A stretch of 33,398 nucleotides of DNA, taken from NCBI GenBank assembly GCA_021296265.1, contig JAGWAT010000016.1:1-33398 (forward strand), given 5' to 3'. The translations under genes and the position numbers were made by a program. Within the stretch, counting starts at the first letter, position 1. Each line of letters starts with the position of its first letter. The stretch comes from Alphaproteobacteria bacterium. Its GTDB lineage: Bacteria; Pseudomonadota; Alphaproteobacteria; TMED109. The notes under the pieces are model-generated. The model searched no databases and was not told the origin of the DNA. It saw nothing but the letters and a program-made list of their open reading frames with translations. Of the stretch, positions 12,948 through 31,479 are shown piece by piece.

Positions 12948-15278
12948 TCAGGCAATGACCGGGACAGGGTTGAGATGCGCTTCAGCAATGGGGCGTTCGC
13001 GCCATTTCATCTCGACGGGCACGTCGTACAGTCGCCCTGGTGCAAAACGCTCCCAGAAATGACGCATTCCCGGCACGATGACCCGCACGACTGGCATCCC
13101 GATGTCTGGCCGGGTTTGATCTAGCACTAGGAAATCCATTCCCTTGGTTTCGACCAAGGCACGGCATCGGTCAACATCATCCCGTATGTCCGCGGTATCG
13201 GGAACGGGGTAGTCGGATTGGCCGCGTGGCGCGGCGTCGGGGGCCGGCGATAGGTAGGGGTGGTCGGCAAGCCGTGCATTCTTCCACCACCACAGGCACA
13301 TCGGGTCGTCCACCCCATACCGCGACGCGCTGCTTCCGGGGCGGGGGACCCAGGTCAGGCACTGGTTCATTTCGCACACCGCGCGCAGGGCAGCGACTTG
13401 TGGGTCCGAATGCGCTCCGGCCCCGTAAATAATGTCCTCCACGTGTCCGTCGGTCCGGCGCGAAAGTGCGACGAACACAGGGATCCCGAGATCGCCTGTG
13501 ATGTCCAGCATCCACATATCGCGGTGAAATTTCAGGTACTGATCGGGAGCGGATGCCAGATAGTCGTCGCCGAAGCTTTCGAGATCCACGCGTGGGAAGC
13601 GCAGTCGGTTGTACCACCAGATGGCGAAGGCATCGCGCTCCACCAGCTCGAAGAAACCCTGCAAAACGGCTTCTTCGAACGTGTTGCCGGCGGCACAGCC
13701 GTTGGAATCCGCCCGGAGGTCAGATTGTCCCCGTTCGTCCGGAGTCATGCTGTACAGGATCGAGGTCGGCAGGAATTGTGGCCGGTCCCGCGTGAGTGAC
13801 CACACCGGTGACCAATCCATCGGGATATCGGGGTTGAACCGTTCGGGGACGAAATTGTAGGGATGGCCTTGCGCATTGATTGCTGCCGCGTGCTCGAGCT
13901 GCCGATCGCTGAACAGCTGGACTTCGTTCGGGTGCAGCGCCTCCAGCTTCCCACCGGCGGCAAACTCCGCATAGCTTTGTCGCCGCCGTATCTCATCACC
14001 GTGAAAGGCACCCGAATACCGCTCGATTGCCTCGCACAGTGCGCTTGCCTCTGACTGCCCGGGCGTGCTCCCCTTGCCCGCACTCTTACTGCGCAAGCTT
14101 CGTCGCAAAGAACTCAAGCTCATGGTCCGCAGCGCCTGATTGCTGCCTGCCCAATGGACATGCAGCCATGGGTCCGTCTCCTTCGTGGTGCGCTCCACCC
14201 ATGTCACGACGCCGCTGACTGGACTGATCAGATGGCGGTACTTGGCGAGGGTCTCTTCTGGCGAGACCAAACGCAGGCCGCCGCTGTTTCTTACGCCTTT
14301 CGGACTGGGTCGCAATCGCACAGGAACGATGGGCCGATCCGGCCGGTACAGGGATTCGTCGCCGCAGGCCGTGCACTGCGGGCGGCGCATGACGGAATGG
14401 TGCTGGCTCCCGAGGCGACCAGCGTTGAACACGATTGCCTGCTCGTGGATGGGTGCTACGTCACCGAACACCAGCCATTTGGCGATTTCAGCCGCAACCA
14501 GGCCGAACACAGTTTCGATCACCGTTGGTTCGCACGCGGCAGGCAAAAATGCGGCGCCAGCGCCGGCACGGTTGCGGAGGAATGTATGGACCTCTTGGTG
14601 GCCGCGCAGGCGGTAGGCGAGGCAAGACCAGCACGGCCCCCCTTCGGCCGGCCGAAAGACCGGCCCGAACGCAGGCTGCATGCCGTTTGGACGAACCAGC
14701 ATCCACGGCATTCCGGAGGCGATGTAGCGGCGATTGAGGTCGGCGTGCTGTTCGTCGAGATAGTCGGAGCACACAATCACGGACAGTGTCGGCCGGGCTG
14801 CACTGATGGTCACGCCCATTGTCTGGAGGCTATGGGCGAGGCCCCCTTCATCGCTTGCGATTGCGACCCGTGATGTCCGCAGTTGTCCTTCGGCCCAGCG
14901 CGGTGTAGCGCCAAGCGCGGACCAATAGGCCGCCCGGCCGCGTTCCATAGCATGCTCGCCGGACACCACGTATCCGCGGGCCGCCAGCGAAACCAGAGCC
15001 GCTCGCAAGTCTGCCTGCGAATATTTGCCCTTGAGCGCACCGGCGATGTCGTTGACAGAGCGGGAGCCGTCGAGAAGTGGCAGAAGATCGCCATGGATGG
15101 CTCCATGGAGCAGCGTGTTGAACGATTCGGACACCAGCAGTGTCTGATCGTCAGCAATTGGGCGGAATTCCAAATGCGGCGTCAACGCCGGCACTTCGAT
15201 CAAGCCGCGGTCGGAAACGGTGATCTTCTTCAACAATCCCTGCCGCGCACGGAATTCCAACGATGTCTGTTCGCCCAT
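12948..15278 (-). CDS. TOMM cyclodehydratase: fused E1-like leader-binding (C) and YcaO (D) protein
   Basis: A 776-residue fusion matching the TOMM precursor leader-binding domain plus YcaO cyclodehydratase, which uses ATP to turn Cys/Ser/Thr of a precursor peptide into azolines. Residues about 20-110 look like the winged-helix RiPP recognition element (LLPLLDGSRSVNDIAGAL). Residues 120-310 are the E1/ThiF-like part with a CxxC pair, C216/C219 and C302/C305 (zinc). YcaO spans about 350-776: ATP/Mg motifs SEASALCEAIERYSG (409-423) and GNTFEEAVLQGFFELVERDA (531-550). The usual C-terminal PxPxP is degenerate, ending NPVPVIA. ATG at 15278, no clear Shine-Dalgarno. It is separated from the export genes by 588 non-coding bases, so it may have its own promoter. 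Likely acts on the precursor at 27103-27378. Confidence 0.93.
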   Translation of the reverse strand: MGEQTSLEFRARQGLLKKITVSDRGLIEVPALTPHLEFRPIADDQTLLVSESFNTLLHGAIHGDLLPLLDGSRSVNDIAGALKGKYSQADLRAALVSLAARGYVVSGEHAMERGRAAYWSALGATPRWAEGQLRTSRVAIASDEGGLAHSLQTMGVTISAARPTLSVIVCSDYLDEQHADLNRRYIASGMPWMLVRPNGMQPAFGPVFRPAEGGPCWSCLAYRLRGHQEVHTFLRNRAGAGAAFLPAACEPTVIETVFGLVAAEIAKWLVFGDVAPIHEQAIVFNAGRLGSQHHSVMRRPQCTACGDESLYRPDRPIVPVRLRPSPKGVRNSGGLRLVSPEETLAKYRHLISPVSGVVTWVERTTKETDPWLHVHWAGSNQALRTMSLSSLRRSLRSKSAGKGSTPGQSEASALCEAIERYSGAFHGDEIRRRQSYAEFAAGGKLEALHPNEVQLFSDRQLEHAAAINAQGHPYNFVPERFNPDIPMDWSPVWSLTRDRPQFLPTSILYSMTPDERGQSDLRADSNGCAAGNTFEEAVLQGFFELVERDAFAIWWYNRLRFPRVDLESFGDDYLASAPDQYLKFHRDMWMLDITGDLGIPVFVALSRRTDGHVEDIIYGAGAHSDPQVAALRAVCEMNQCLTWVPRPGSSASRYGVDDPMCLWWWKNARLADHPYLSPAPDAAPRGQSDYPVPDTADIRDDVDRCRALVETKGMDFLVLDQTRPDIGMPVVRVIVPGMRHFWERFAPGRLYDVPVEMKWRERPIAEAHLNPVPVIA

Positions 15279-15866
15279 GGAGTTCGTGAAGCCTGCCGAT
15301 TCCGAGTACGGCGTCGTCTGCGGTCGCCTTGATCGCGGCCGAATGCCGTTCCGCTCGCCCCGTCGGCCGAATTCGGTACTCGCGGAAGGCTACCAGATTG
15401 GGGCCGGTTCAAGGCCGCAGGACCGTTGGCAGCCGAGCTTAGGAGCTTTGCCGAGGCCGGCAGTTCGCCGCGTCCCTGTGGTTGGTGCCGCGCCAACACG
15501 GCACAGGCTTGGGCTCACATCCCGTCAAGGAGATTGGGAACCGGTCGGCGGTATGCATCAGGGCCAGCGATCCATCCCATGAATGATCGCATCCGCAGGT
15601 CTGTTACAAGGCTGCAAGTTTTTTTTACGTCACATGCTCCAGGAATGGCTCTTCCAATCGTGGGGGCATCCATACAAGCTGGTCATGTCCCGACGCTTCG
15701 GGCGGCCGTACCGGCCCGGTGCCGACGGGCTGCCCGGGAAGCATTGTTCGATGTGGATGTCGCAGGAGGCGGGAGCTTTATGTAGCGCTCGGAGTACGTG
15801 GCAGGATGGCACCGCCGCCCGTACCGTGCGCCTTTCCATGGTGCATCGAGATATTCAGGCTGGGAG
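15279..15866. other. intergenic stretch between export genes and cyclodehydratase
   Basis: A 588-bp region without a convincing gene. It contains a T8 run at about 15619-15626 on the + strand, preceded only by a weak GCAG/CTGC stem. Short minus-strand frames (for example 15630-15839, 69 codons, and a 21-codon ATG frame near 15580) lack ribosome-binding sites and any leader-peptide resemblance. It probably holds the promoter and leader of the cyclodehydratase gene. Confidence 0.45.
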
Positions 15867-18785: not shown

Positions 18786-18789
18786 CGGG

Positions 18790-21012
18790 TCAGCCAGACC
18801 GGACGAGCTTGCTGTAGGCGCCGTCATTGTCGGCCATCAACGTGTCGTGTGTGCCGCGTTGTATGGTCGCGCCTTTTTCAAGCACGATAATCTCATCACA
18901 ATCGCGCACCGTGCTCAACCGGTGGGCAACGATCAAGCAAGTGACGCCACGCCGACGTATTGCGTCATAAACATATTCTTCGGTAGCTGCGTCCAGCGCG
19001 CTCGTCGCTTCATCGAGAATCAGCACCGTCGGATCACCGACCAAAGCCCGCGCGATTTCCAGCCGCTGCCGCTGGCCACCACTGAAATTGGCCCCGCCTT
19101 CGTCTACTGCTGTCGCGTAGCCGAGCGGCCGTCTGAGGATATCGTCGTGGATGCAGGCGTCGCGGGCGGCGGTGACAATCGCCTCATCGGGAATGGCCGG
19201 ATTCCACAGCGTGATGTTGTCGCGCAGGCTCGCAGAAAAGAGCGCGACCTCTTGGTCCACCATTGACAGGGAGCGTCGAAGCACCTCTTCCGGGATTGCA
19301 TGCCGTGGTTGGCCGTCAAACAAAATCTCGCCGGACCAGGGCTGATAAAGCCCGGATACCAAGCGGGACAGGGTTGACTTGCCGGAACCGCTTGACCCCA
19401 AGATCGCGACCCGCTGGCCGGGTTTGACGAATAAATCGAAATCCTTGATCAGCGGGGGCCGTGCCCGGTTGTAACCGAAGGTGACCCCCCGTAGCTCTAC
19501 TCGGCCGGCCAATTGCAAACGTCCCTTGAACGTCGGGATCGAATCGATTTTAGAGCTCCGGCGTGCGAATCCTGGATCTTCCGATGATTTGGTGATGTCC
19601 TCTAGGCGGTGCATATCGATTTCGAGCGCTTGACACCTTTCAATAAACTCGGCAAACCGGCCAACGGGTTCGAGGAACATGGCCGCTAGGAAGAAAAATC
19701 CGACCAGCGTGCCGAGCGAGATTTGGTCGGTCATTACCTGCGTGGCCCCGACCGTCAGGACGGTCGCACTGCCGAGGATCAGCAGCAACCCGGGTAGGGC
19801 ATTGTTGAAATGGCCGAGTTCCGCGTATCGTTGGTTTGCAGCCAGTTCACGTGCTTGCTGCCCGCCCCAACGCTGGAAGAATCGGTCGTCCGCAGCGGTC
19901 ATTCGCAGACTGTCGGCGTGCTGGAGCATGAGCATTCCGATACCCAACAGCAATCCCTGTTCGCGCCGGACGGCATGACCTTCGTCGATTTTCAGGCGCG
20001 TCACCAAGTAGACAGCCAGCCCGTTTAGCAATCCCAGGCCCAAGACGATCAGCGCGAGCATCCAGTTGTAGGCGAGCATCACCGCGAGAAACACAGCGCT
20101 TGTAACGACCTCGACCAGAAGGCCAACAAACTGTTCCGATAACCCTTTGGCGATCCGATCAATGGATAGGATGCGGGCAGTCAGCTCGCCGACCAGCCGG
20201 TGGTTGAAGAATTCTACTGGCAGGCGCAGTAGTTGCGAGACGGAGCGGTTGCCCGCGATGACAGAGATTCGGACAGCCAGACGCTTCAAACAGCGCTGCT
20301 TTAGCCAGGTCAGCCCGTAAACTAGGATGGCAGTGCCGGCCATCACTGCTGCGACATATGTACCTAGGGGGTTTCCGTCCGCCAGTACGCGGTCCACGAA
20401 AATGCTCAGCAACGCTGGCAGCATCAGCGCCAGCAGCGCCAGCAACAGTCCCGCGGCGGATACGTTGACGATCGCGCTTCCTGCGCCGGTCAGCCAGAGG
20501 GGGAGCTGTCGAAATAGGCTGGGCCGGTCGCCCCCAGTTTGAAACTCGGGCCCAGGGTCGAATTGCAGCGCAATTCCGGAAAAGCCTTGGCTGAACTTTT
20601 GTTTCGTGAGTGTTCGGCGACCCGTGGCGGGATCGTTGAGATAGAAGCATCGGTGGTCGAAGCCTTCGAGAATGAGGAAGTGGTTGAACTCCCAGAACAG
20701 GATTAGGGGAAGTGGCAGCTTGGTGATCTGACCGACTTCCACACTCCGTCCGGTACAGTTGAGACCGTAATGTCGAGCTGCGCGGAAGATGCCGGCGGCA
20801 GTAGAGCCGTCACGACTGACCTCGCATCGCTCGCGCAGCTCGGTGAGCGGTGCCCAGCGCCCGAAAAACGCAAGCACGCTGCCGAGACAGGCAGCGCCGC
20901 ATTCCGTCGAATGCATTTGCAATAGGAGCGGTGTGGTCACCCGCCTCACTAACGAGTCACGCTCAGAATTTTCTCCTACAGCGGCGGGCCCTCCTGCCTT
21001 GTGCGGAACCAT
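18790..21012 (-). CDS. NHLM-type C39 peptidase-containing ABC exporter
   Basis: A 740-residue bifunctional exporter that cuts leader peptides after small-residue sites and exports the core. C39 peptidase at residues about 27-145: C38 in LLQMHSTECGAACLGS, H111 in FWEFNHFLIL and D127 in YLNDPATG form the expected catalytic set. Six membrane helices lie in about 165-450, then the ATPase: Walker A GSSGSGKST, signature FSGGQRQRLEIARAL, Walker B VLILDEATSALD, switch His in IVAHRLST. ATG at 21012 directly abuts the TGA of the adaptor gene, so translation is coupled. The natural substrate is inferred to be the NHLP precursor at 27103-27378, cleaved after SAG. Confidence 0.93.
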   Translation of the reverse strand: MVPHKAGGPAAVGENSERDSLVRRVTTPLLLQMHSTECGAACLGSVLAFFGRWAPLTELRERCEVSRDGSTAAGIFRAARHYGLNCTGRSVEVGQITKLPLPLILFWEFNHFLILEGFDHRCFYLNDPATGRRTLTKQKFSQGFSGIALQFDPGPEFQTGGDRPSLFRQLPLWLTGAGSAIVNVSAAGLLLALLALMLPALLSIFVDRVLADGNPLGTYVAAVMAGTAILVYGLTWLKQRCLKRLAVRISVIAGNRSVSQLLRLPVEFFNHRLVGELTARILSIDRIAKGLSEQFVGLLVEVVTSAVFLAVMLAYNWMLALIVLGLGLLNGLAVYLVTRLKIDEGHAVRREQGLLLGIGMLMLQHADSLRMTAADDRFFQRWGGQQARELAANQRYAELGHFNNALPGLLLILGSATVLTVGATQVMTDQISLGTLVGFFFLAAMFLEPVGRFAEFIERCQALEIDMHRLEDITKSSEDPGFARRSSKIDSIPTFKGRLQLAGRVELRGVTFGYNRARPPLIKDFDLFVKPGQRVAILGSSGSGKSTLSRLVSGLYQPWSGEILFDGQPRHAIPEEVLRRSLSMVDQEVALFSASLRDNITLWNPAIPDEAIVTAARDACIHDDILRRPLGYATAVDEGGANFSGGQRQRLEIARALVGDPTVLILDEATSALDAATEEYVYDAIRRRGVTCLIVAHRLSTVRDCDEIIVLEKGATIQRGTHDTLMADNDGAYSKLVRSG

Positions 21013-21909
21013 TCAGAAGTGATCCGCAGTGAGCAGCGCTACAGGTGCGTGTTGGCCGAGCGCGACGCGTACTGTGCACGGCGTTCCATCGGGCAAGGAG
21101 AAGTCCGTTGGTGGGTCACGAAGCACGATATCGACTCGATCCCTGGCCAGCGGAACAGCCGGGTTCAATCGCGCAAGCCAGTCTGGCAACGGTCCCGTGG
21201 TGATTTGGTCAACCTCGCCTTCCAGTCGACCCGTTCGGCCATCGGTCGTCATGAATTCGACCGTTGCCTCCATCCCCGGCTGAATATGCTGCGCCGTCGA
21301 CCGGTTGACGCGGAGTACGGCTTGGAGAAGGGGTTGTTTAGGTTTGCGGACTTGCGCAACGGTGTTTCCCGCCATTAGGAATTCTCCGGGATCGGAGAAG
21401 AGGGACATGACCTGACCTTCGCTCCGACTGACGATCAACTGCCTTGCCGAGCGCTGGGCTTCCATCTGCAGCAGTGCAACCCGGGCCGTGGCGAGAAGAG
21501 TACGCAGGACGCTGTCGTTTCCGCCGGTGACCTGTTCGAATTCGGTCCGAAGCAAGTTCACGCGGTCGCGAAGTGCCGAGGTTTCACGTTCGAGTTCCGG
21601 CACGTTCTGGCGGGCGATGGGCTGGCCATCTTCCACATGATCGCCCGGTGCGACCAGGAATTCGATCAGTCGCCCTGGCTCGGTGGCAACTACGTTGTGG
21701 CGCTCGCCGGCCTTGATCAACAGGCCATCGACAATGGCGTATCGTTCGATGCTGCCGAAGCCTGCCCAGGCGGAAAACGCCAGAATCAGCAATCCAGTAC
21801 AAACGAGAGCTATACGTTCGTGCGGTGCCGTGATTCTGAGAAGGCCGTCGAGTTGCTCGCGTTCGCCTTTACTGTCGGCGACAACCCTGTGAAATGGGTT
21901 ACTGAACAC
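21013..21909 (-). CDS. NHLM-type secretion protein (HlyD-like membrane-fusion adaptor)
   Basis: A 298-residue adaptor matching the NHLM secretion protein family. One N-terminal membrane helix (about residues 33-54, LVCTGLLILAFSAWAGF) is followed by a periplasmic biotinyl-lipoyl-like half (GLLIKAGERHNVVATEPGRLIEFLVAPGDHVEDGQPIA), a coiled-coil stretch (about 107-165) and the second lipoyl half (SEGQVMSLFSDPGEFLMAGNTVAQV), then a beta-barrel region. It would link the inner-membrane ABC proteins to the outer layer. GTG at 21909; only a weak GGGGA upstream. It heads the three-gene export operon and has hairpins in its 5' leader. Its stop touches the start of the next gene with no gap. Confidence 0.9.
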   Translation of the reverse strand: MFSNPFHRVVADSKGEREQLDGLLRITAPHERIALVCTGLLILAFSAWAGFGSIERYAIVDGLLIKAGERHNVVATEPGRLIEFLVAPGDHVEDGQPIARQNVPELERETSALRDRVNLLRTEFEQVTGGNDSVLRTLLATARVALLQMEAQRSARQLIVSRSEGQVMSLFSDPGEFLMAGNTVAQVRKPKQPLLQAVLRVNRSTAQHIQPGMEATVEFMTTDGRTGRLEGEVDQITTGPLPDWLARLNPAVPLARDRVDIVLRDPPTDFSLPDGTPCTVRVALGQHAPVALLTADHF

Positions 21910-21944
21910 AGATTGCGATTCCCCAACTTACTGTTTAGGCAGAG

Positions 21945-22015
21945 GAGTCAGCCTGACTCGAATTGGTCCGAGTACCTTGACTAACGGAAGCACTAGAAAT
22001 AGTGCGGGGCCAATT
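21945..22015 (-). promoter_or_regulatory. hairpins/operator-like dyads in leader of export operon
   Basis: Directly upstream of the adaptor gene are GAGTCA-GCC-TGACTC (21945-21959), a 6-bp perfect dyad, and a compound stem-loop. In the latter, 21961-21969 pairs with 22007-22015 (nine pairs, one G-U), enclosing GCACTA-GAAA-TAGTGC at 21990-22005. On the minus strand these lie 36-106 bases before the GTG. They could be a protein-binding site or a folded 5' leader; no known riboswitch was recognised. Confidence 0.45.
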
Positions 22016-22913
22016 TGGAGGTAATAACCATCAGCTCAGCAGTTCGGCAAGCTATCGGCACTGGACAGGTGTCTCCTTGACGTTCCGCAGATCAATTGGA
22101 TTGACAAGACGCGGCTGGCAACTCGCATTTCTAGCATCCAAAGTGATCTTGTCAGATGACGGTTACTTCAGTTAACAGAGGGTCGCATCCGAACTAATTC
22201 GCGCCCACCCAAAAACTGACTGGTTGGGGTCCCGACTTTGTTGCGAGTAAGATGATAGCGAGTGGGATTATAGACGATGTAATTCCAGTTCATGATGAGA
22301 ATTGACACCTAATCCGAGTTAGTGCGAAAAACGGGATCGGGCCCGCACGGGCAGGGACAGAAAGTCAATAACGTACTGATTGTAATAGGATAAGACTTTC
22401 CTCGAGATTCGCTAGCGCGCGCCAGATGCGGGCGAGCGAGGGCAGCCAGCGCAAGATACTTGTCATGCCTACCGAAGAAGATGCACGGCCCACGAGCTGC
22501 TGGTAAAGTCCGGTTGGACGGTCGCAGTCTGTGTCCCGCTCAATGCACTCGGCGACCACATGTGTTTGAAATGATGGAAAACTGAGATGCTCGCCGACCA
22601 TCCCCATCGTGCGCCGACACCCTTGGCGGCGCGCGGTACGGCTAACCAACCGACCTCCGACACGTTGGAACCGACGGAGGAAGTGGAGGGTTGCCAAGCC
22701 ATGTTGGAAGCCGAGAGTAGGGAGTTCCCGATTGCGCCTCAGACCAAGCCGTGCAGTAACACACCGGTTGGCGGTCGTTCCTCGCCCGCACCACTTTCAA
22801 GAACGCACGGGGCAAGGACACCTCCACGAGGTGTCGTTCGGAACCGGATGTTGCGAGATCCCTTGGCGAAAGTGGAGTTCACATCGGTCCCAGTCATCAG
22901 ATAGGGGACTGTC
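22016..22913. other. non-coding stretch between divergent RiPP transcription units
   Basis: About 900 bp between the export operon and the 365-residue unknown gene. The 22016-22400 part is visibly more AT-rich than the surrounding DNA. It contains TTGACA-like hexamers (22302-22307; also near 22102) and, on the minus strand, TATAAT at 22267-22272, without convincing paired elements. Frames at 22365-22697 (-), 22587-22904 (+) and 22642-22827 (-) overlap one another and resemble no family I know. It probably holds the promoters of both units plus decayed DNA. Confidence 0.45.
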
Positions 22914-24011
22914 GTGAACGTCGCTGAAGGACTGGCTGGCAGCGAGGAGCGGCTGCTTCACGAGGCCGAATCCTTCGGTCACATGGTCGAGGGACTCAGG
23001 ACCCACATTTCCCCTGCGCTGATCGGAGGTCATGGCTGGGAGAGGCTGCTCATGCGAGCCAGAGAGTTGCCGGTGACCTTTGGCGCCTTCCCGTTCGGGT
23101 TCGAGCTACCACTGCACGAGACAGAGCCAAACGCAGACTTCGGGGTCTCCCTCATCGGCGGGAGCCGTTCGGCCGCATTTATCGAGGAAGCAGCGAGGTC
23201 GCCGGGCGCGTCTCCGGCCACGGTCGGGATCGCCCATCTCCTGAGCGCGATGGAACAGGAAGGCTCAGCCCTTCGTAGTGTCGCCGGCAGGAAGATCCTG
23301 CTCGAGTTTGACATCGACCGGGCCGCTCAGGGGGATTCTGCAGACCCGGGGATCTTCCTTTACCCGGAAACGCAGACGCTTATCGGTGACGGCCGGCGGT
23401 TTGGCGACGTGAATGTCATGCTTGAAGCGGTTTGTGCCGCCGCCGGATGGACATTGACCGACCCGGAACGACGGGAGGCTGAGCGTGTTTATTTGGCGCT
23501 GATACCCGCGACTGGCGTCCGCTCCGTGGGCACCTTTCCGGCACGCGCCAGGAGCATCCGTCTAGCGATGACGGGCTTCCGGACGGCTGGCGAGGTGGAG
23601 GCATTTCTGAAACAGGCCGGCTGGCCCGGGGATCGCGCAGCCGCCACCGCCGTCGTCACGCGCCTCGAGCAACTTGAGGCCTTTGCTCACATGGGGGTCC
23701 ACTTCGACATTGGAGAGAACGGCGTCGGGCCCAAGCTGGGACTCAGCTGCTTCGCTCGGGAGACGGAATGGCTCAAGGATGTCCGGCACTGGTCGGCTCT
23801 CTTCGACGCCCTGCGCGAGGAGCCCATAGTCGTGCGGGAGAAGCTGTCTGCACTGGCTGACACGTCTTCGGGTGCGGAAGTTCTATTTGGCAGGTCCGGG
23901 GCTATTACGCTCCTACGCGGCATTCACCACATCAAGTTAGTTCTGACCGAAAACCGGTTGGAGCAGGTCAAGGCCTACGTCTTCCTGCTGTTAATGAGCA
24001 TGCCGCGGTAG
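22914..24011 (+). CDS. uncharacterised 365-residue protein of the RiPP island
   Basis: I do not recognise this protein. It has no signal peptide or membrane helix, so it is probably cytosolic. Two strand-like segments share an FDI core: KILLEFDID (127-135) and GVHFDIGENGVGPKLGLSCF (261-280). Between them are predicted helices (EVEAFLKQAGW; TAVVTRLEQLEAF) and a strand SIRLAMTGF. The alternation of strand pairs and helix pairs is loosely like a barrel of repeated alpha-alpha-beta-beta units (as in PT-barrel prenyltransferases), but that is speculation without sequence support. GTG at 22914, weak GGGG upstream. It is divergent from the export operon and convergent with the methyltransferase (17 bp between stops). 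Its place inside the island suggests a tailoring or accessory role. Good coding statistics: one long frame, no competing frame. Confidence 0.75.
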   Translation: MNVAEGLAGSEERLLHEAESFGHMVEGLRTHISPALIGGHGWERLLMRARELPVTFGAFPFGFELPLHETEPNADFGVSLIGGSRSAAFIEEAARSPGASPATVGIAHLLSAMEQEGSALRSVAGRKILLEFDIDRAAQGDSADPGIFLYPETQTLIGDGRRFGDVNVMLEAVCAAAGWTLTDPERREAERVYLALIPATGVRSVGTFPARARSIRLAMTGFRTAGEVEAFLKQAGWPGDRAAATAVVTRLEQLEAFAHMGVHFDIGENGVGPKLGLSCFARETEWLKDVRHWSALFDALREEPIVVREKLSALADTSSGAEVLFGRSGAITLLRGIHHIKLVLTENRLEQVKAYVFLLLMSMPR

Positions 24012-24028
24012 CGTGTGGGCGTTGAGGG

Positions 24029-24895
24029 CTAGCACGGTCTAGTGCCGGAGATGAAGCGGTACGTGAAGACGCCTTCCTGCAGCCCTTGATCGTAGTTCAT
24101 GGTCGCTTCCATGAACTCCTGAGATGCTCGATTCTGCCCGCCGGTCGGTGTGGTCACAAACGTGAACAGTAGCCACCGCTTGCGGATCTTCTCGGTGGCC
24201 GGCGCCACCTCAGCGGAGAGATCTTGATCCGTTATACGCTCGAACCCCACCTCCTTGAGCGTCGCCAGCACGTCGCGGCACGGCTCGAGCGGCGGCATGC
24301 GCCACCCCCGCTGAGTGATGACGTGCGCCTCCTCCTGGGTCTCGGATAGCGGCTTGTCGCCCAGTAGCCCTTCCAGGCACTGCCATCGTCCGCCCGGCTT
24401 GAGTACACGGAAGATTCCTTGGAGATAGGTGCGTTTGTCCGGCGCGTAGCAAAAGGTTTCATGATTCAGCACCGCATCGAAATGTGCATTGGGAAATTGC
24501 AGGTCCATGAAGTCTCCGTGGAGAAATTCAACTAGATGGCCCACGCCGCGCCTTTCTGCGTGTTCCGCGGCAACAGCGACGTGGGGCTCACAGTTGGTCA
24601 GGCCGGTGACGTGAATGCCATGCGTCTCTGCCAGCGTGATCGCCGTGCCACCGACGCCGCTGCCGGCATCAAGCACCCTCCGGCCCGGACTGAGGTCGCA
24701 ACCCTGCACTAGGGTCTGGTTGGCACGCAGCAGAGCCTCCCGATCGTTCGTCGTGTTTGGCCCCCACAGGCCGAAATGGCAGGCCAGTAGATTGCCGCCA
24801 AAATTAAGCATGTGAGTGGTCAGGGCAGCGTAGTGATCGGGGACCGAGGTCTCCCAACGTCGCTCATGTGCTGCCGACTGTTTCGGGTGGCTCAT
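24029..24895 (-). CDS. class I SAM-dependent methyltransferase, sterol/geranyl C-methyltransferase-like
   Basis: A 288-residue methyltransferase with motif I RVLDAGSGVGG (73-83), an acidic residue near the end of strand 2 region (NCEPHVAVAAEHAERRGV), motif II GDFMDLQFPNAHFDAVLNHE (127-146) and RVLKPGGRW (163-171). The stretch NHETFCYAPDK...YLQGIFRVLKPGG resembles the C24-sterol / cyclopropane-synthase-like branch, which methylates carbon atoms or nucleophiles in small molecules. The target here is unknown; C-, N- or O-methylation of the azole peptide is possible. ATG at 24895 overlaps the oxidoreductase stop in an ATGA, so translation is coupled. Open frame extends to 25345 but that part lies antiphase within the oxidoreductase gene. 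Confidence 0.88.
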   Translation of the reverse strand: MSHPKQSAAHERRWETSVPDHYAALTTHMLNFGGNLLACHFGLWGPNTTNDREALLRANQTLVQGCDLSPGRRVLDAGSGVGGTAITLAETHGIHVTGLTNCEPHVAVAAEHAERRGVGHLVEFLHGDFMDLQFPNAHFDAVLNHETFCYAPDKRTYLQGIFRVLKPGGRWQCLEGLLGDKPLSETQEEAHVITQRGWRMPPLEPCRDVLATLKEVGFERITDQDLSAEVAPATEKIRKRWLLFTFVTTPTGGQNRASQEFMEATMNYDQGLQEGVFTYRFISGTRPC

Positions 24896-26274
24896 GGACT
24901 TCCTCCGAATGTCATGCTGCCCCCTTCCAATATCCGGTGAGGGTCGAACACCTGCTTCCATCCGATACCTGTTTCGAGGATCTCTCCGTAGTGCTCCTGC
25001 CATTGCCGATGCCCGTAGCCCACCCCGCCCGAGAGATAGCTCTTGCCTCCGATTGCGACGAGAAACTTTGTGATGTCTCTCAATCTTGCCGCCAGTGCGT
25101 TCGCTTTTTCGACATCGTCCAGCACAGCAAGGATTGAGTACGAGATCATGTGCTCCTCCTTGGGATGCATAAAAAACGGGGCGTCGACCGAGTTTGTTGC
25201 GATCGGATATATCCCAGTCCAGCTTCGCGGTGCCCGCGGAATCTCGACCGGGTCTAGCCAGGGCTGGGCGAGCACTGTGTGCAGGGTTTCCCACGGTAGG
25301 AACCAATCGCGCCACGGGTGGTAATGCGTCGGCCGGAAACCCCATGTTGGGAACATGCCGGCATGACCGACATCGGCCGTGTCCCAGACAATCGCCATGC
25401 TGTCGTACCCCAAACCGGACAGCATCTTCCCGTGATCCAGGTCATCGTCGTATTCGGCCGCAGCGCGCAGCACAATTTGTCGGTCGTGAGCCCGCATCTC
25501 CGCTCGCAGATGGTCGAAGCGGCCTTCTTTAACGAGTTCCTTGAGGTCACTGGCGAAGCGCTCGAAATCACGGTAGCGGAACTCATATTGCCGATGTCTT
25601 CTCCCCGCCTTTCGCAGCCGGATCCAAGCTTCGGTGATGACGCCGAAGTGCCCTTGGCCGCCTCTCACGGCATTGAAGAGGTCCGCATTCGTGTCGCGCG
25701 AACAGCGAACACGCTCGCCGGTGCCGACCACCACCTCAAGCTGCTCAACTTGTCCGATCTGTAGCCCGTAGCGGTGTGAGGTGGTTCCCAGCCCAGCGGA
25801 AGATAGCGTGCCGCCCACTGTCACCTCGGTCGCATCCGTGAGTACCCGCGGCAAGTGACCGGTGCCACTCAGCGCAGCCACGACCTTGATCCATGTCGCC
25901 CCGCCTTGTGCGCGCACCAGTCCCTGACCTAGGGGCCTGACTTGGTTGAGCCGCCTCGTGTCCAGCGCCACGCCGCCGTCCGTGAGGCATTGCCCGCCCT
26001 GGGAGTGGCCTCCTCCACGAATGGCCACCCGGACACTCTCACGCGCAGCCCACCGGATGACACTCGATACGTCCTCGGCGCTCTCCGGAGTCGCCACCGC
26101 TCCCGGCATCCTCCTGATCATTCCCCCGAAGTCGCGAGAACATACCTTCCTGTGTTGTAGATCTCTGCTAATTCGCGGTACGGGGCTTCGTTCAATCATT
26201 CTAGGCGCATTCCATGCCTGCCCCTGCGTCTCGATACGGGCACCTGCTATATCGGATGGGTGGGCCTCTTTCAT
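24892..26274 (-). CDS. cytokinin-dehydrogenase-like FAD-linked oxidoreductase (VAO/PCMH family)
   Basis: A 460-residue flavoprotein of the vanillyl-alcohol-oxidase fold. The FAD domain has RGGGHSQGGQ with H90, the residue that carries covalent FAD in this family, and VTVGGTLSSAGLG (151-163) and ADLFNAVRGGQGHFGVITEA. The block LTDATEVTVGGTLSSAG matches cytokinin dehydrogenases closely in spacing, including an Asp (D147) at the place of their catalytic Asp. The cysteine used for a second covalent FAD bond in berberine-bridge enzymes is absent. The C-terminus (VFDPHRILEGG) is also typical. Such enzymes oxidise C-N or C-O bonds. Here it is coupled by ATGA overlaps to the methyltransferase downstream and to the remnant transporter upstream. 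A role in oxidising azolines or another peptide bond is inferred, not shown. Confidence 0.87.
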   Translation of the reverse strand: MKEAHPSDIAGARIETQGQAWNAPRMIERSPVPRISRDLQHRKVCSRDFGGMIRRMPGAVATPESAEDVSSVIRWAARESVRVAIRGGGHSQGGQCLTDGGVALDTRRLNQVRPLGQGLVRAQGGATWIKVVAALSGTGHLPRVLTDATEVTVGGTLSSAGLGTTSHRYGLQIGQVEQLEVVVGTGERVRCSRDTNADLFNAVRGGQGHFGVITEAWIRLRKAGRRHRQYEFRYRDFERFASDLKELVKEGRFDHLRAEMRAHDRQIVLRAAAEYDDDLDHGKMLSGLGYDSMAIVWDTADVGHAGMFPTWGFRPTHYHPWRDWFLPWETLHTVLAQPWLDPVEIPRAPRSWTGIYPIATNSVDAPFFMHPKEEHMISYSILAVLDDVEKANALAARLRDITKFLVAIGGKSYLSGGVGYGHRQWQEHYGEILETGIGWKQVFDPHRILEGGSMTFGGSP

Positions 26275-27051
26275 TTGCGCAATTTCGGCAGGTTTCGAGT
26301 GCCCATCAGCGGGGCCTGCGGGAGCGCGAAGTCGGCGAGAATCGCGAAAGCGACGACCGCGGTGAGCAGTTCCAGTTTGCTCGGTGGAAATGAACGCCGA
26401 TGCGGCCCCTCGGTCCCGGTGGCAAGACGTTGCAGGAACTGACCACCTTAAAACCCTAACCGTTCAATCTACGGCAGCCAATTCCTTCACCGCATTGACC
26501 ACTCTGACACTGTCGTTGTTGGCAGCCGTCTACCGGAAGCTCGCGAGTGACCTGATCCGCGTTGAATACGACGTCACCTACGTGCCTTCGCTCAGCTAGA
26601 CCGGCAGCTTGGAGGTCTTGTTCCGATGTGGCGCTGCCATCGTCGAGAACGATCATGAAGATAACGATGTCGACCTTTTTGCGCGAGTTCGCTCGTGACA
26701 GTGACTCAAAGGCCAGGAAGTCGGGATTGTCCTTGCTCAAGTATATGCGGTGGTGAGTGGGAGGCTTGAGAAATAGGGCCCTTTGGCGAACAGCAGAACC
26801 CGGCGGCGGCCATGACCCATCAGTGACAGGCAACCCGCCCATTCCGCCCACTGCAACCATAAGCTCAGCAAGGTGCAATCGTGTCTGCCTGCAATTGCCA
26901 CTACAGCAACGCGGAATTGTCACCCACACACAGCATCGCTCAGTGTGGTACGCGGCGGCAGCAACGCCTTTGGTCCCATGGCCGACAATAAAGGCAACCC
27001 ACGACGCAAGCGCGTTACCCACGCCCCGCTTCGTGGGCCGCCTTCCGCCAT
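26271..27051 (-). pseudogene. decayed RND/MMPL-family transporter with internal deletion
   Basis: Fragments in different frames match the intact RND transporter at 28092-30449. N-terminal start: ATG at 27051 with MAEGGPRSGAWVTRLRRGLPLL, preceded by GAGGAA. Then LFLKPPTHHRIYLSKDNPDFLAFESLS and IVIFMIVLDDGSATSEQ (about 26610-26780) align with residues 43-93 of the intact protein. DSVRVVNAVKELAAVD (near 26470) aligns with its DGSVSAVNVTVELPE. After about 26450 the frame SFPPSKLELLTAVVAFAILADFALP gives the last membrane helix (intact: VGLLTAMIIGCALLADLVLLP) and runs to a TGA at 26273-26271 that overlaps the oxidoreductase ATG as ATGA. About 500 central codons are missing and several frameshifts are present. 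It was evidently once the second gene of the precursor operon. Confidence 0.82.
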
Positions 27052-27102
27052 CTCAAGTAGTTCCTCGCCAGTACTTTCGGCACACGAAGTGAGAAGTTTG
27101 TT

Positions 27103-27378
27103 TCAGAAGCAGCAACAGAGGCCAGCCGAGATCGCTTCAAGCTGCTCTTCGTCTAGGTTTGATCCGGGCGGCAGCGCCAAATGGATGGTTCGCATGTCGC
27201 TCTCGTGGACCTCGATGTTGACATTACCCGGAAGGTCGATACCAAACTCCTTGTTGATTGTGGCTTTAGGGTCAGCAACCAACTGGCTCCGGAACTCCAA
27301 GTCGTCCATCGCCTTCTGCGTGAGGTGGACACGCATCTCTTCAGCCGACCTGATGGCCGAATCCATGAACGCGCTCAT
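27103..27378 (-). CDS. NHLP (nitrile hydratase-like leader) RiPP precursor peptide, core -LCCCF
   Basis: A 91-residue precursor. The leader resembles the nitrile hydratase alpha-subunit N-terminus, as in the NHLP family: FRSQLVADPKATINKEFGIDLPGNVNIEVHESD is followed by TIHLALPP, the usual conserved core of such leaders. It ends DEEQLEAISAGLCCCF. Small residues SAG (84-86) form the likely C39 cleavage site, leaving LCCCF with three adjacent cysteines as cyclodehydratase targets. ATG at 27378 is chosen because AAGGGAGAG lies just upstream; the in-frame GTG at 27405 would place that Shine-Dalgarno inside the gene. First gene of the minus-strand precursor - (transporter remnant) - oxidoreductase - methyltransferase order. 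The family is well supported; cleavage site and modifications are inferred. Confidence 0.92.
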   Translation of the reverse strand: MSAFMDSAIRSAEEMRVHLTQKAMDDLEFRSQLVADPKATINKEFGIDLPGNVNIEVHESDMRTIHLALPPGSNLDEEQLEAISAGLCCCF

Positions 27379-28091
27379 AAGATCTCTCCCTTCTTCAACG
27401 GTCACAACCGTGGGAAGCTATGATGTTCGGCGAAGTGTGCCGGATACGCTACTTATACACGAGTGAGCAATCTCATGCTTATACTTTTTTCTAGTAGTAA
27501 TATTGGAAAATTTGATGCATAGGGTTTGCTGCGCATGGGGTACGATCGGGCTGACGTGGCGCCCACTATCCTAAATTGATGCACGTGACGCATGTCCCCT
27601 GTGAAAACAGACCTCTGCAACGTGTGCTGGCCGGACAACGGGCGTAGGCAGGGGCGAACCGGGACATCGCAGCCGGGCAATCCCCGCGACGGCCGACGGC
27701 CAAGTGAATTGTGGCAACCGTGCGCATCGAAAGAGCGAGAGTTAGGATCAAGGCTTCGGACAATCTCCAGATCAAGATGTATGAGCGTGACACGCAGAAT
27801 GCTGATCCCTGAGATCCGCCGGACTGGGTGTTGGCTGGAGGACGTCATGGGGCGGTCGCTGCTGATCAATGTTGCTGTGGAATTTGATGTAGTTTGTTTT
27901 CCTGGACACGCTACGACTGGACCTTGGACGGCTACATCGCATGAGAGTTGCTGGCACGTGCGGCAAATGCTGACGCTACACGCTTTGAGATGCGGCTTAC
28001 CGTGCCGACACCGGATTTCGGCATAGCGGTTCCGTTTGATCGAAAATGGGCGGTGGTGGCTCTTGGGCCAACAGCGAGAGTGGCTGCGATC
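27379..28091. other. divergent promoter region between precursor and RND transporter
   Basis: About 710 bp. The first 190 bases upstream of the precursor include an AT-rich block (27450-27515) with two minus-strand TATAAG hexamers (27452-27457 and 27478-27483), a plausible promoter zone, though no clear -35 box was found. The rest, up to 28091, has only overlapping frames (27592-28026 +, 27453-27869 -) without family resemblance. The open frame of the transporter runs back to 27948, but that extension looks non-coding. Confidence 0.45.
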
Positions 28092-30449
28092 ATGGCTGAT
28101 AAACCCGACGTCCTGGCTCCGAGTTTCGAGGCACGATACGCTCGGTGGGTAGTCGCCGCTCGCTGGCCCGTTATCGCAGCCAGTATTATTGTGGTTCTGC
28201 TGGCAGGTACCGGCGGCCTGTTCTTAAAGTTTTCTACCAACTACCGGATATTCTTCAACGCAGACAATCCCGAATTGTTGGCGTATGAAGCATTAGAACA
28301 TACTTACGGAAAGACTGACAACATCCTCTTCATGATCGTTCCGGAAGGTGGCGATGCCACGTCGGAACAGGCGCTTTCAGCTTCAGTCTGGCTGACCGAG
28401 CGTGCTTGGAAAACCCCATATTCGAAGCGCGTCGATTCACTGGCCAACTTCCCGCACACTACGGCAGATGGGGATGAATTGTCTGTGCGCGACCTTGTGG
28501 CCCCCGGGCAGTTGGGCCAAGAACGGGCGCGCAATTGGATCCGTGAGACGGCATTGGCTGACCCCCGTCTCTTAGGGAGTCTCTTGGCTCGGGACGGCAG
28601 TGTGAGCGCTGTCAATGTGACCGTCGAACTACCCGAAGAAAATCAGGCAATTCGAGTGCCTGAGGTCGCCGCATTTGCAGATACAGTGGCTGCGGAAGCG
28701 AAGGAACGGTTTCCGGGCATTGGTTTCCGTGTGGTTGGATCAGTGATGATTAACCACACTTTTTCGGAGGCGTCGGTAAATAGTCAGAAAATCTTCCTGC
28801 CCGCAAGCCTCGGAATTATGGCCCTGATTCTAGGGATCCTTACTCGGAGTATCACGGGCGTGGGGACGACAGGGCTGGTAATCGTCTTTTCAATCATCGC
28901 CTCGATGGGACTCGGGGGCTGGGTAGGTCTTCCTTTCACACCCCCTACCGCCCCGGCTCCGACCATCGTATTGATGATAGTGGTGGCCAACTGTGTGCAT
29001 CTGCTGGTTGCCTTACGGCAGCGCTTGCGTGTCGGTGATGACAAGCGCGCGGCTGTCATTGAAGCGGTCAGGCTCAACCTGTATCCAATCTTTCTCGCCA
29101 GCCTGACCACGGCACTTGGCTTCTTGAGTATGAATTTTTCCGAGGTGCCGCCTTACCGCGACCTTGGAAACTTTGTGGCATTTGGGATCGGCGCTTCCTT
29201 CCTGCTTTCGATCACCTTTCTTCCGGCGTTGCTATCACTGCTGCCAGTGCGGGCGCCGGTGGCCAAGCGACGGGAAAAGCTGGCGGTGGAAGCCATCGCG
29301 GAATTTGTCATTCGGCGCCGGAAGGTATTGCTGTTGGGATCAGTTCCGGTTGTGTTGGCCCTGCTGGCAGCCATCCCGCGCAACGAACTAAACGACGTGC
29401 TGGTTCACTTCTTCGATGAGACCACGGAGTTCCGCCAGAACACTGATTTCTTGGATCAGCGGTTGAGTGGGAACACACAGTTCGAATACTCGTTGGCGGC
29501 GTCCGGACCGGGCGATGTCATCGAGCCCGCCTTTCTTGCTGACGTGGCGAACTTCGCTGAGTGGTACCGCGAACAACCGGAAACACGGCACGTCGAAGTC
29601 ATCACCGATACTTTCCGGCAGCTCAACAAGAGCATGCACGGGGACGATCCCGCGGCCTACGATCTTCCAGCTAACCGGGAACTCGCCGCACAATACCTGC
29701 TGCTCTACGAGCTCTCCCTTCCGCAGGGACTCGACCTCAACCACCGGATTGACCTTGGGCATTCCGCGACGCGGATGACTGTTACGACGCGGACGCTCTC
29801 CTCGCAGGCTGTCCTTGATTTGAACGACCGCGCAGAGGCTTGGCTGCAAGTTAACGCACCCCATATTGTAAACGTGGACAGCTCAGGCCCAGCACTCTTG
29901 TTCGGACACATCGGTCAGCGGAACATTCGAGCGATGCTGCTCGGTACAGGGATGGCGCTGTTGGGCATTTCAGCTGTGCTTCTTGTCGCATTGCGATCGC
30001 TCCGCCTGGGCTTGGTGAGCCTTGTGCCCAATTTCGTTCCCGCAATAATGGGATTTGGCATCTGGGGCTTGGCAGTGGGACAGGTGGGGCTCGCGCTGTC
30101 GGTGGTGGTGGCCATGACAATTGGAATCGTGGTCGACGACACGGTTCACTTTCTCAGCAAATACCTACGCGCGCGGCGTGAGCACCACTGCACGCCAGAG
30201 GACGCAGTACGTTACGCGTTCCAGACGGCGGGGCAGGCGCTTGTCACGACTACGATTGTGCTAATTGCGGGCTTCCTGATTCTGGTCTTCTCGCCATTTA
30301 TTCCCACTGCTCAAGTTGGTTTGCTCACGGCAATGATCATTGGGTGTGCGTTACTTGCCGATCTGGTGCTCCTGCCGACGCTGCTCATGACCATTGATCG
30401 CGGTTCTCAGGTTGCGGGAAGGCTTCGACGTAGTCCCAGGGGACACTGA
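28092..30449 (+). CDS. RND superfamily / MMPL-type transporter
   Basis: A 785-residue inner-membrane permease with the duplicated RND/MMPL layout. The first helix is at residues about 24-44 (WPVIAASIIVVLLAGTGGLFL), a large periplasmic loop follows (STNYRIFFNADNPELLAYEALE onward), then five or so helices with the acidic and small-residue motifs typical of MMPL (IMALILGILTRS, MSMNFSEVPPYRDLG). A second half repeats the pattern and ends FIPTAQVGLLTAMIIGCALLADLVLLP. Members export lipids, hopanoids or small hydrophobic compounds by proton motive force; the substrate here is unknown. ATG at 28092 (MADKPDVLAP) is chosen because the equivalent start exists in the decayed homologue (MAEGG...); the Shine-Dalgarno is weak. 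Its placement next to the precursor suggests product export or self-protection. Confidence 0.88.
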   Translation: MADKPDVLAPSFEARYARWVVAARWPVIAASIIVVLLAGTGGLFLKFSTNYRIFFNADNPELLAYEALEHTYGKTDNILFMIVPEGGDATSEQALSASVWLTERAWKTPYSKRVDSLANFPHTTADGDELSVRDLVAPGQLGQERARNWIRETALADPRLLGSLLARDGSVSAVNVTVELPEENQAIRVPEVAAFADTVAAEAKERFPGIGFRVVGSVMINHTFSEASVNSQKIFLPASLGIMALILGILTRSITGVGTTGLVIVFSIIASMGLGGWVGLPFTPPTAPAPTIVLMIVVANCVHLLVALRQRLRVGDDKRAAVIEAVRLNLYPIFLASLTTALGFLSMNFSEVPPYRDLGNFVAFGIGASFLLSITFLPALLSLLPVRAPVAKRREKLAVEAIAEFVIRRRKVLLLGSVPVVLALLAAIPRNELNDVLVHFFDETTEFRQNTDFLDQRLSGNTQFEYSLAASGPGDVIEPAFLADVANFAEWYREQPETRHVEVITDTFRQLNKSMHGDDPAAYDLPANRELAAQYLLLYELSLPQGLDLNHRIDLGHSATRMTVTTRTLSSQAVLDLNDRAEAWLQVNAPHIVNVDSSGPALLFGHIGQRNIRAMLLGTGMALLGISAVLLVALRSLRLGLVSLVPNFVPAIMGFGIWGLAVGQVGLALSVVVAMTIGIVVDDTVHFLSKYLRARREHHCTPEDAVRYAFQTAGQALVTTTIVLIAGFLILVFSPFIPTAQVGLLTAMIIGCALLADLVLLPTLLMTIDRGSQVAGRLRRSPRGH

Positions 30450-31472: not shown

Positions 31473-31479
31473 GGTCAGG

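What the first reader, a model, noticed from the sequence alone, without database searches (positions are those of the whole stretch)
12948..30449. NHLP-type azole RiPP island with a pentapeptide-sized, three-cysteine core
The sequence shows a fused E1-like/YcaO cyclodehydratase, a full three-gene NHLM export set and a 91-residue precursor ending SAGLCCCF. In known NHLP/TOMM systems the C39 exporter cuts after a small-residue site, which would release about LCCCF. Cyclisation of three adjacent cysteines would give a tris-thiazole(-ine) of about five residues, much smaller than usual TOMM products, and a possible metal binder. The set of tailoring genes (cytokinin-dehydrogenase-like enzyme, SMT-like methyltransferase, unknown 365-residue protein, RND pump) is not one I can match to a described product.
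Basis: partly seen in the sequence, partly recalled or inferred. Interest (0 to 1): 0.85.

Follow-up and report, generated by a model that had tools for sequence, protein, structure and literature searches.

The report
Halogenase-free sister of sponge srp RiPPs
A bacterium whose closest relatives live in marine sponges carries genes to make a tiny, three-cysteine ribosomal peptide that is probably turned into a row of sulphur rings and, judging from a newly recognised prenyltransferase fold, given a terpene-like tail; it looks like a separate branch of a known sponge-symbiont family.

Summary
A 91-aa NHLP precursor (27103-27378, -) ends EEQLEAISAG|LCCCF, beside a fused YcaO, a C39 export set, a cytokinin-dehydrogenase-like flavoenzyme, a methyltransferase and an RND pump. 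The core is not unmatched: published srp clusters of sponge microbiomes use LCCCW, whose cysteines SrpC turns into thiazolines and whose Trp SrpI brominates. In 78 related loci (capped scan) 82 of 83 parsed precursors keep CCC. The loci fall into two kinds. LCCCW-only (64): brominase in 35, terpene-cyclase-fold protein in 45, the window's methyltransferase in 0. Other cores only (9; LCCCG[ILF], LCCC, RCCC, LSCCM): methyltransferase in 9, brominase and cyclase in 0. The window (LCCCF) belongs with the second, 'type II'. My searches found no description of type II, but the founding srp paper was not held. The 'unknown 365-residue protein' has a predicted ABBA prenyltransferase fold (pLDDT 91) and occurs in both kinds. 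Best reading: a prenylated, methylated or oxidised tris-thiazol(in)e pentapeptide; only the parts, not the chemistry, are shown. Nothing found supports a metal binder. Remnants of a second YcaO, RND gene and CCCGI precursor show a duplicated, partly decayed island.

The parts
27103..27378 (-). NHLP precursor, 91 aa, ending EEQLEAISAG|LCCCF (the only TIGR03793 match over cut-off in the genome)
   Evidence: 60.2 bits, cut-off 50.9; 61-71% to seven CCCG-type precursors; Leu-12, Leu-7, Ile-4, Ala-2, Gly-1, compare LahT substrates (PMC6363468 passages)
12948..15278 (-). fused E1-like/YcaO cyclodehydratase, 776 aa, SrpC-like
   Evidence: TIGR03604, TIGR03882, PF02624; closest solved structures LynD, TruD, MusD; in the type II clade of the YcaO tree, nearest L068
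15867..18827 (-). NHLM ABC transporter without peptidase (ABC2)
   Evidence: TIGR03797 best hit, 679 bits, cut-off 709.4
18790..21012 (-). NHLM ABC transporter with C39 peptidase (ABC1)
   Evidence: TIGR03796 best hit, 850.1 bits, cut-off 853.3; C39 domain like LahT 6mpz, E 3e-34, catalytic Cys, His and Asp kept
21013..21909 (-). HlyD-like adaptor of the export set, 298 aa
   Evidence: TIGR03794 best hit but 86 bits, cut-off 156.2; HlyD homologues seen in 8 of 9 type II loci
22554..22863 (+). remnant of a second YcaO (C-terminal part; stop and frame change inside)
   Evidence: tblastn with the L068 YcaO, E 2e-12; lies upstream of the prenyltransferase-fold gene, the place of YcaO in the 9 type II loci
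22914..24011 (+). 'unknown 365-aa protein': predicted ABBA-fold (PT-barrel) prenyltransferase
   Evidence: AlphaFold pLDDT 91.1, pTM 0.90; the 50 listed Foldseek PDB rows are all prenyltransferases, best E 4.5e-6; no meaningful Pfam, NCBIfam or PDB sequence match
24029..24895 (-). SAM methyltransferase MT1 (about 288 aa; the 438-aa ORF starts too far upstream)
   Evidence: PF08241; frame read; PDB matches to sugar O-MT, MitM, 5gm1, C6-FPP MT, BezA, sterol C24-MT; in 9 of 9 type II loci, 0 of 64 LCCCW-only loci
24892..26274 (-). cytokinin-dehydrogenase-like FAD oxidase with RGGGHS
   Evidence: PF01565, PF09265; best PDB matches cytokinin dehydrogenases, E 7.5e-50 by profile; 59-63% to those of 5 type II loci; 6 congeners have only distant FAD proteins, best E 7e-12
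26603..26773 (-). remnant of a second RND gene, downstream of the intact precursor
   Evidence: tblastn 49% over 57 aa, E 3e-10
27747..27887 (+). remnant of a second precursor, frame ends ..QCCCGI*, just upstream of the intact RND gene
   Evidence: tblastn to CCCG-type precursors, best E 3.7e-7, one internal stop
27948..30449 (+). MMPL/HAE3-type RND exporter (homology starts near 28092)
   Evidence: PF03176, sterol-sensing PF12349; TIGR00921 and HpnN matches below cut-off; 63-78% to the RND of type II loci, 44-45% in three mixed loci

Best explanation
This is a second, halogenase-free kind ('type II', my name) of the srp family of proteusin (NHLP-leader) RiPPs. Proposed working: (1) the YcaO binds the leader and cyclodehydrates the three Cys of LCCCF to thiazolines; (2) the ABBA-fold protein prenylates the peptide, acceptor unknown; (3) MT1 and the cytokinin-dehydrogenase-like flavoenzyme methylate and oxidise the prenyl group, the thiazolines or a terminus; (4) the C39 domain cuts after SAG and the NHLM set exports the pentapeptide; (5) the RND pump moves a hydrophobic product. 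Shown by sequence or model: the parts, their conservation, the two kinds of locus, the predicted prenyltransferase fold. Inferred from srp work: thiazolines. Inferred from fold and context only: prenylation, the targets of methylation and oxidation, the role of the RND pump.
For: Published: SrpE core LCCCW, three thiazolines by SrpC (PMC10858898, PMC10286304). YcaO 64-66% to the YcaOs of six congeners and LynD-like. CCC in 82 of 83 parsed precursors; type II-only vs LCCCW-only loci: MT1 9 of 9 vs 0 of 64, FAD oxidase 5 of 9 vs 0 of 64, halogenase 0 of 9 vs 35 of 64, cyclase-fold fusion 0 of 9 vs 45 of 64, prenyltransferase-fold gene 9 of 9 vs 52 of 64. The prenyltransferase-fold tree (42 of 77 copies) puts the two kinds on the two sides of one branch, 100/100. 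Fold; alternating conserved residues Lys127/Glu131/Asp133, Arg335/His339/Lys341, Lys353/Tyr355. Precedent: the leader-dependent alpha-beta-beta-alpha prenyltransferase MppC geranylates a Trp in a RiPP cluster that also holds a SrpI-like halogenase and a terpene synthase (PMC12715784, PMC11791876). LCCCW loci add a class II terpene-cyclase-fold protein with a fused NHLP-like leader.
Against: No chemistry was tested. The prenyltransferase call rests on one predicted model; TM-scores are 0.35-0.56 with rmsd of 6.5 A or more, and no sequence model agrees. The second structural aligner was never available. LCCCF has no Trp, Tyr, Ser or Thr, so the acceptor is unclear. The FAD oxidase is missing from 4 of 9 type II loci, and MT2 (in 7 of 9) from the window's genome. 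MT1 matches O-methyltransferases at least as well as prenyl methyltransferases. LCCCF was seen only here, in an island with three pseudogene remnants. The YcaO tree is not clean: two LCCCW loci (L079, L120) sit inside the type II clade and L135 outside it. In four of the five mixed loci a second, MCCCGI precursor stands without MT1.
Confidence: 0.52

Rival explanations
1. A plain srp-like azoline pentapeptide: three thiazolines, no prenyl group; the 365-aa protein is a non-catalytic or otherwise acting relative of the ABBA fold, the FAD oxidase is the azoline oxidase and MT1 an N- or O-methyltransferase.
For: No SagB-type azoline dehydrogenase in the 7 genomes of the genus, so a flavoenzyme could fill that role. 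MT1 hits O-methyltransferases first. The core has no usual prenyl acceptor.
Against: The ABBA-fold protein occurs in both kinds of locus and keeps alternating basic and Tyr residues on its strands. A 30% relative occurs with a cyclase-fold relative in two NHLP stretches where no YcaO was seen, so it is not simply a YcaO helper. Azoline oxidation by a cytokinin-dehydrogenase-like enzyme has no precedent that I know (recall).
Confidence: 0.32
2. A metal-binding (chalkophore- or siderophore-like) tris-thiazole pentapeptide.
For: Three contiguous Cys conserved in 82 of 83 parsed precursors while the residues around them vary.
Against: I recognised no metal-uptake or TonB-receptor gene when reading the window's ORFs; this was by eye, no family search was run on most flanking ORFs. 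Conservation of CCC is equally explained by the cyclodehydratase.
Confidence: 0.06
3. A decaying island making no functional product.
For: Remnants of a second YcaO, RND gene and precursor; LCCCF seen only here; MT2 missing from this genome.
Against: One intact copy of YcaO, exporters, prenyltransferase-fold gene, MT1, FAD oxidase, RND and precursor remains. pN well below pS in the precursor. The remnants are complementary: intact precursor with dead RND, dead precursor with intact RND.
Confidence: 0.1

Closest known systems
srp clusters of sponge microbiomes (SrpE/SrpC/SrpI)
   Same: NHLP leader, pentapeptide core with CCC, fused YcaO; the LCCCW loci found here, which I take to be srp, share the NHLM exporters and the prenyltransferase-fold gene
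   Different: core LCCCF not LCCCW; no SrpI, no terpene-cyclase-fold fusion, no LolA-like gene; has MT1, FAD oxidase, another RND pump and HlyD
mpp cluster of Moorena (MppE/MppM/MppC/MppI/MppD)
   Same: long-leader RiPP with a small core; leader-dependent alpha-beta-beta-alpha prenyltransferase (PMC12715784)
   Different: Nif11-like leader and LanM instead of YcaO; Trp acceptor; has a halogenase and a terpene synthase
MprE/MprC/MprD azole proteusins (PMC12455567, part 1 of 3 read)
   Same: NHLP leaders modified by a YcaO
   Different: ten precursors with two to six azolines; MprD is an FMN-dependent azoline oxidase
cyanobactin cyclodehydratases LynD/TruD/MusD
   Same: closest solved structures of the YcaO
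   Different: short, unstructured leaders; cyanobactin prenyltransferases act after leader removal (PMC12455567, PMC12715784)
teleocidin TleC/TleD (that 5gm1 is TleD, and what it does, are recalled)
   Same: ABBA-fold prenyltransferase plus a SAM methyltransferase; MT1 and MT2 both match 5gm1
   Different: not a RiPP; MT1 also matches O-methyltransferases, so the likeness is only suggestive
unnamed NHLP/YcaO families of a sponge BGC survey (PMC9426513, section 9 read)
   Same: that survey predicts further azol(in)e NHLP RiPPs in sponges with oxidoreductases and group transferases; type II may be among them
   Different: cannot be told: its figure is not held and the text names no core or gene set

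Membership tests
srp proteusin cluster | NHLP leader over the TIGR03793 cut-off | tested here: met
   60.2 bits vs 50.9
srp proteusin cluster | core with three contiguous Cys just after the SAG site | tested here: met
   SAG|LCCCF
srp proteusin cluster | C-terminal Trp, the bromination site | tested here: not met
   Phe in the window
srp proteusin cluster | SrpI-like flavin-dependent halogenase | tested here: not met
   G000 best PF04820 hit 18.9 bits, cut-off 21; all 6 congeners have one over it
srp proteusin cluster | SrpC-like fused YcaO cyclodehydratase | tested here: met
   64-66% to the YcaOs of six congeners, which have LCCCW precursors; separate clade
srp proteusin cluster | three thiazolines formed on the core | not testable with these tools
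   needs expression and mass spectrometry
NHLM export set | three transporter families over curated cut-offs | tested here: inconclusive
   best hits, but 850.1/853.3, 679/709.4 and 86/156.2 bits
C39 (LahT-type) leader peptidase | catalytic Cys, His, Asp and oxyanion Gln | tested here: met
   aligned with 6mpz; residue roles from PMC6363468 passages
ABBA prenyltransferase | PT-barrel fold | tested here: met
   predicted model only; the 50 listed PDB rows are all prenyltransferases (that they are of the ABBA kind is recalled)
ABBA prenyltransferase | match to a known ABBA sequence family | tested here: not met
   no such Pfam or NCBIfam hit for any of 42 members; 0 PDB chains by profile at E 1
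ABBA prenyltransferase | prenyl transfer activity | not testable with these tools
   needs an enzyme assay
TOMM with azoline oxidation | SagB-type dehydrogenase | tested here: not met
   0 of 7 genomes; the control rang in 8 of 14
cytokinin dehydrogenase-like FAD oxidases | FAD domain with a His for covalent FAD (GGHS; role recalled) | tested here: met
   RGGGHS in 6 of 6; PDB cytokinin dehydrogenases closest; the cytokinin-binding domain matches only weakly (2.1e-6)

The most novel reading that the evidence does not exclude
The CCC proteusins of sponge symbionts are terpenoid RiPPs. A hidden ABBA prenyltransferase puts an isoprenoid on the tris-thiazoline peptide. The srp lineage then works on the chain with a class II terpene cyclase that carries its own NHLP leader, while the window's lineage has replaced cyclase and brominase by prenyl-chain methyltransferases and a cytokinin-dehydrogenase-like flavoenzyme: methylation in place of protonation, as in teleocidin.
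Probability: 0.3. Interest if true: 0.82.

Novelty: new variant of a known kind. Interest (0 to 1): 0.62.

Why it matters
No final srp product is described in the papers and passages I saw. If a prenyltransferase, and in srp a terpene cyclase, belong to the pathway, a search for the compound by its bromo-peptide mass alone would look for the wrong molecule. Type II loci cannot be found by mining for halogenases, the route by which srp was found (PMC12615548, passages), and by their MAG labels they are spread over four phyla. They offer a natural contrast (Trp and brominase against no Trp and methyltransferase) for testing what each tailoring enzyme does.

Tried and rejected
Considered and set aside: NHLP-Burkholderia two-peptide type (weak hit only, 21.7 bits, cut-off 41); combinatorial NHLP systems with hypervariable cores (the core is conserved); a MAG artefact (a related locus lies beside topA in congeners G022-G027). 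A pattern search for D-x-D-D/T in the cyclase-fold protein found 2 of 53, both in the leader part; the invariant motif is DLDS (DxDS/T in 37 of 37). Search for known ABBA prenyltransferases (PF11468) in 398 genomes for a profile comparison: none, but the control did not ring either, so it shows nothing. Profile comparison of the prenyltransferase-fold and cyclase-fold families: unrelated. PHROGs on the RND remnant ORF: nothing. Literature searches for type II.

The 83 parsed precursors are those with E under 1e-25, not fused, and with an EEQLEA motif. In some searches a gene counts as present at 25% of the reference length and 30% identity; many loci are cut by contig ends, so absences in LCCCW loci are partly truncation. 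Rows share ancestry, so the Fisher values overstate certainty. The YcaO tree holds 61 rows, 8 of them type II; L067, L077 and L034 gave no full-length YcaO.
Full report
What is there. The window is the whole of contig C73 of a 2.54 Mb, 77-contig genome. The precursor (27103-27378, minus) is 91 aa and ends EEQLEAISAG|LCCCF. YcaO, two ABC transporters, HlyD, FAD oxidase and methyltransferase are on the minus strand; the 365-aa gene and the RND gene on the plus strand. The methyltransferase probably starts at 24895, overlapping the FAD oxidase by four bases (frame read; inference).

Who else has it. In the window's order (28 genomes, one family) all 6 other genomes of the same genus carry NHLP precursors over the cut-off; none of the other 21 does. 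Three congener contigs have the same length as named records: VXPW01000021 (Rhodospirillales SB0662_bin_7), JAJDZX010000079 and JAJDWH010000032 (Alphaproteobacteria jk18x bins). MAGs named jk18x come from Caribbean Ircinia sponges (PMC9531527, passages). So the host is most likely an alphaproteobacterial sponge symbiont; this is inference from its congeners. A scan of the species-genome collection with the precursor alignment returned 78 loci, from MAGs labelled Alpha-, Gamma- and Deltaproteobacteria, Acidobacteria, Gemmatimonadetes, Nitrospirales, Nitrospinota, Binatia, Chloroflexi, Rhodothermales and others.

The core is a known one, with variants. Of 83 precursors parsed in the 78 loci, 69 end LCCCW, 4 MCCCGI, 3 LCCCGI, 2 LCCC and one each LCCCGL, LCCCGF, RCCC, WCCCGN, LSCCM. 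LCCCW is the core of SrpE. Its three Cys are made into thiazolines by the YcaO SrpC and the terminal Trp is brominated by SrpI (PMC10858898, part 1 of 9 and passages; PMC10286304, passages). The paper that discovered srp (JACS 2021) is not held, so I cannot say whether it mentions the other cores. A 2022 survey predicts further azole NHLP families in sponges without naming cores (PMC9426513, section 9). A full-text search for the core strings showed LCCCW in print, and no LCCCG or LCCCF in the 15 of 52 papers listed. At the DNA level LCCCF has the codons of an LCCCGF end, as in L067, without the Gly codon, apart from two synonymous differences.

Two kinds of locus. The 78 loci fall into 64 with LCCCW only, 9 with other cores only, and 5 with both. 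LCCCW-only: halogenase 35, cyclase-fold fusion 45, LolA-like 28, YcaO 49, MT1 0, MT2 0, FAD oxidase 0. The 9 others: YcaO 9, MT1 9, MT2 7, FAD oxidase 5, HlyD 8, halogenase 0, cyclase fusion 0, LolA-like 0. The five of these nine with FAD oxidase are exactly those ending LCCCG[ILF]. The five mixed loci all have the cyclase fusion, the LolA-like gene and the type I prenyltransferase-fold gene; halogenase was seen in one, and MT1 and MT2 in the same one (L080). The tree of the prenyltransferase-fold protein (42 of 77 copies) separates the two kinds on one branch with 100/100 support. In the YcaO tree (61 rows, quick method) the window lies in a 9-row clade (SH-aLRT 100) with 6 other type II YcaOs and two LCCCW ones (L079, L120); the type II L135 falls outside. 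The window's YcaO is 72% identical to that of L068, a MAG labelled Deltaproteobacteria (Myxococcota in the tree listing), but 64-66% to those of its own genus, and the FAD oxidase has no close copy in any congener. This points to transfer between phyla. The halogenase over cut-off and the cyclase fusion are missing from the window's genome, while all six congeners have the halogenase.

The unknown protein is a predicted prenyltransferase. It is present in 61 of the 73 single-kind loci and next to YcaO in 15 of the 17 printed loci that show both genes (the window and L120 are the two exceptions). The window's genome has one copy. An AlphaFold model from 42 homologues has mean pLDDT 91.1 and pTM 0.90. 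All 50 listed PDB matches are prenyltransferases, to my knowledge all of the ABBA kind: AmbP1 (E 4.5e-6), IptA, AmbP3, the enzyme of strain CL190, CloQ, EpzP, DMATS enzymes, and the RiPP enzyme KgpF at rank 45; 41 rows have E up to 0.001, TM-scores are 0.35-0.56. Sequence searches see nothing meaningful. Fully or nearly conserved residues alternate on the strands: Lys127-Glu131-Asp133, Arg335-His339-Lys341, Lys353-Tyr355. That they face the barrel is inferred from the alternation; coordinates were not examined. The relevant precedent is MppC, an alpha-beta-beta-alpha prenyltransferase that geranylates a Trp in a leader-dependent way (PMC12715784, parts 1 and 2 of 3); its cluster also encodes a SrpI-like halogenase and a terpene synthase (PMC11791876, passages). 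MppC did not act on Trp82 changed to Phe, which speaks against Phe as acceptor by analogy. Ten papers hold both 'proteusin' and 'prenyltransferase'; in the two of them that I opened the prenyltransferase is not one of srp.

Type I has a matching partner. The roughly 433-aa protein with an NHLP-like N-terminus found in LCCCW loci is modelled (pLDDT 80.8) as a class II terpene cyclase fold: drimenol synthase (best E 9.7e-13), squalene-hopene cyclases, MstE. A DxDS/T motif is present in 37 of 37 aligned copies, with Asp209-Leu-Asp-Ser invariant. Type II loci lack it and have MT1 instead. MT1 and MT2 match 5gm1 (TleD, as I recall) and C6-FPP methyltransferase; MT1 also a sterol C24-methyltransferase and MT2 geranyl-diphosphate methyltransferase; but a sugar O-methyltransferase and MitM score higher for both. 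The idea that methylation replaces protonation of a peptide-bound prenyl chain is therefore a hypothesis, not a finding.

Cleavage and export. The C39 domain is closest to LahT (6mpz, E 3e-34) and keeps Gln, Cys, His and Asp. LahT holds hydrophobic residues at -4, -7 and -12 of its substrate and tolerates charged ones badly (PMC6363468, passages); the precursor has Ile-4, Leu-7, Leu-12, Ala-2, Gly-1. The RND pump belongs to the MMPL/HAE3 group with sterol-sensing and HpnN-like matches, which fits a hydrophobic product but does not prove one.

A duplicated, partly decayed island. Three remnants lie inside it: a YcaO C-terminus upstream of the prenyltransferase-fold gene, where the 9 type II loci have YcaO; an RND piece downstream of the intact precursor; and a precursor remnant ending CCCGI upstream of the intact RND gene. 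In 8 of 9 type II loci the RND gene follows the precursor directly (in L135 it does not), so the simplest reading is an inverted duplication of a precursor-RND pair in which one member of each copy died. One intact copy of each function remains except MT2.

Odds. That the locus is a type II relative of srp making an azoline CCC peptide: about 0.85. That the 365-aa protein has the prenyltransferase fold: about 0.85. That it prenylates the product: about 0.55. Full terpenoid reading: 0.3.

Noticed in passing
L184 and L185 (G389:C196:1-19000; G211:C87): A further NHLP kind: precursors ending GGIAPTDDSY and GGFAPGGDSW with both ABC transporters, a 30% relative of the prenyltransferase-fold protein and a 36-38% relative of the cyclase-fold protein, no YcaO seen in the stretch.
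   Followed up: partly
L031:12708-14006 and the other copies listed (53 in all, some the same contig fetched twice): NHLP-like leader fused to a class II terpene-cyclase fold in LCCCW loci: an enzyme that seems to carry its own precursor-type leader.
   Followed up: partly
G024:C98 (L080) and G025:C6: Two different precursors side by side, LCCCW and WCCCGN or WCCCGQ, and two prenyltransferase-fold genes on the same contig.
   Followed up: partly
L034 (G023:C54:1-16317): A type II-like cluster whose precursor ends GGGSAGCM, without the CCC run.
   Followed up: no
G024:C46:8571-9677 and 22304-22774: A second halogenase and a distant prenyltransferase-fold relative on one contig.
   Followed up: no
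window 30501-32076: Two neighbouring genes that look like intradiol dioxygenases (name by eye, no call); the pair is kept downstream of the RND gene in congeners G024 and G025.
   Followed up: no
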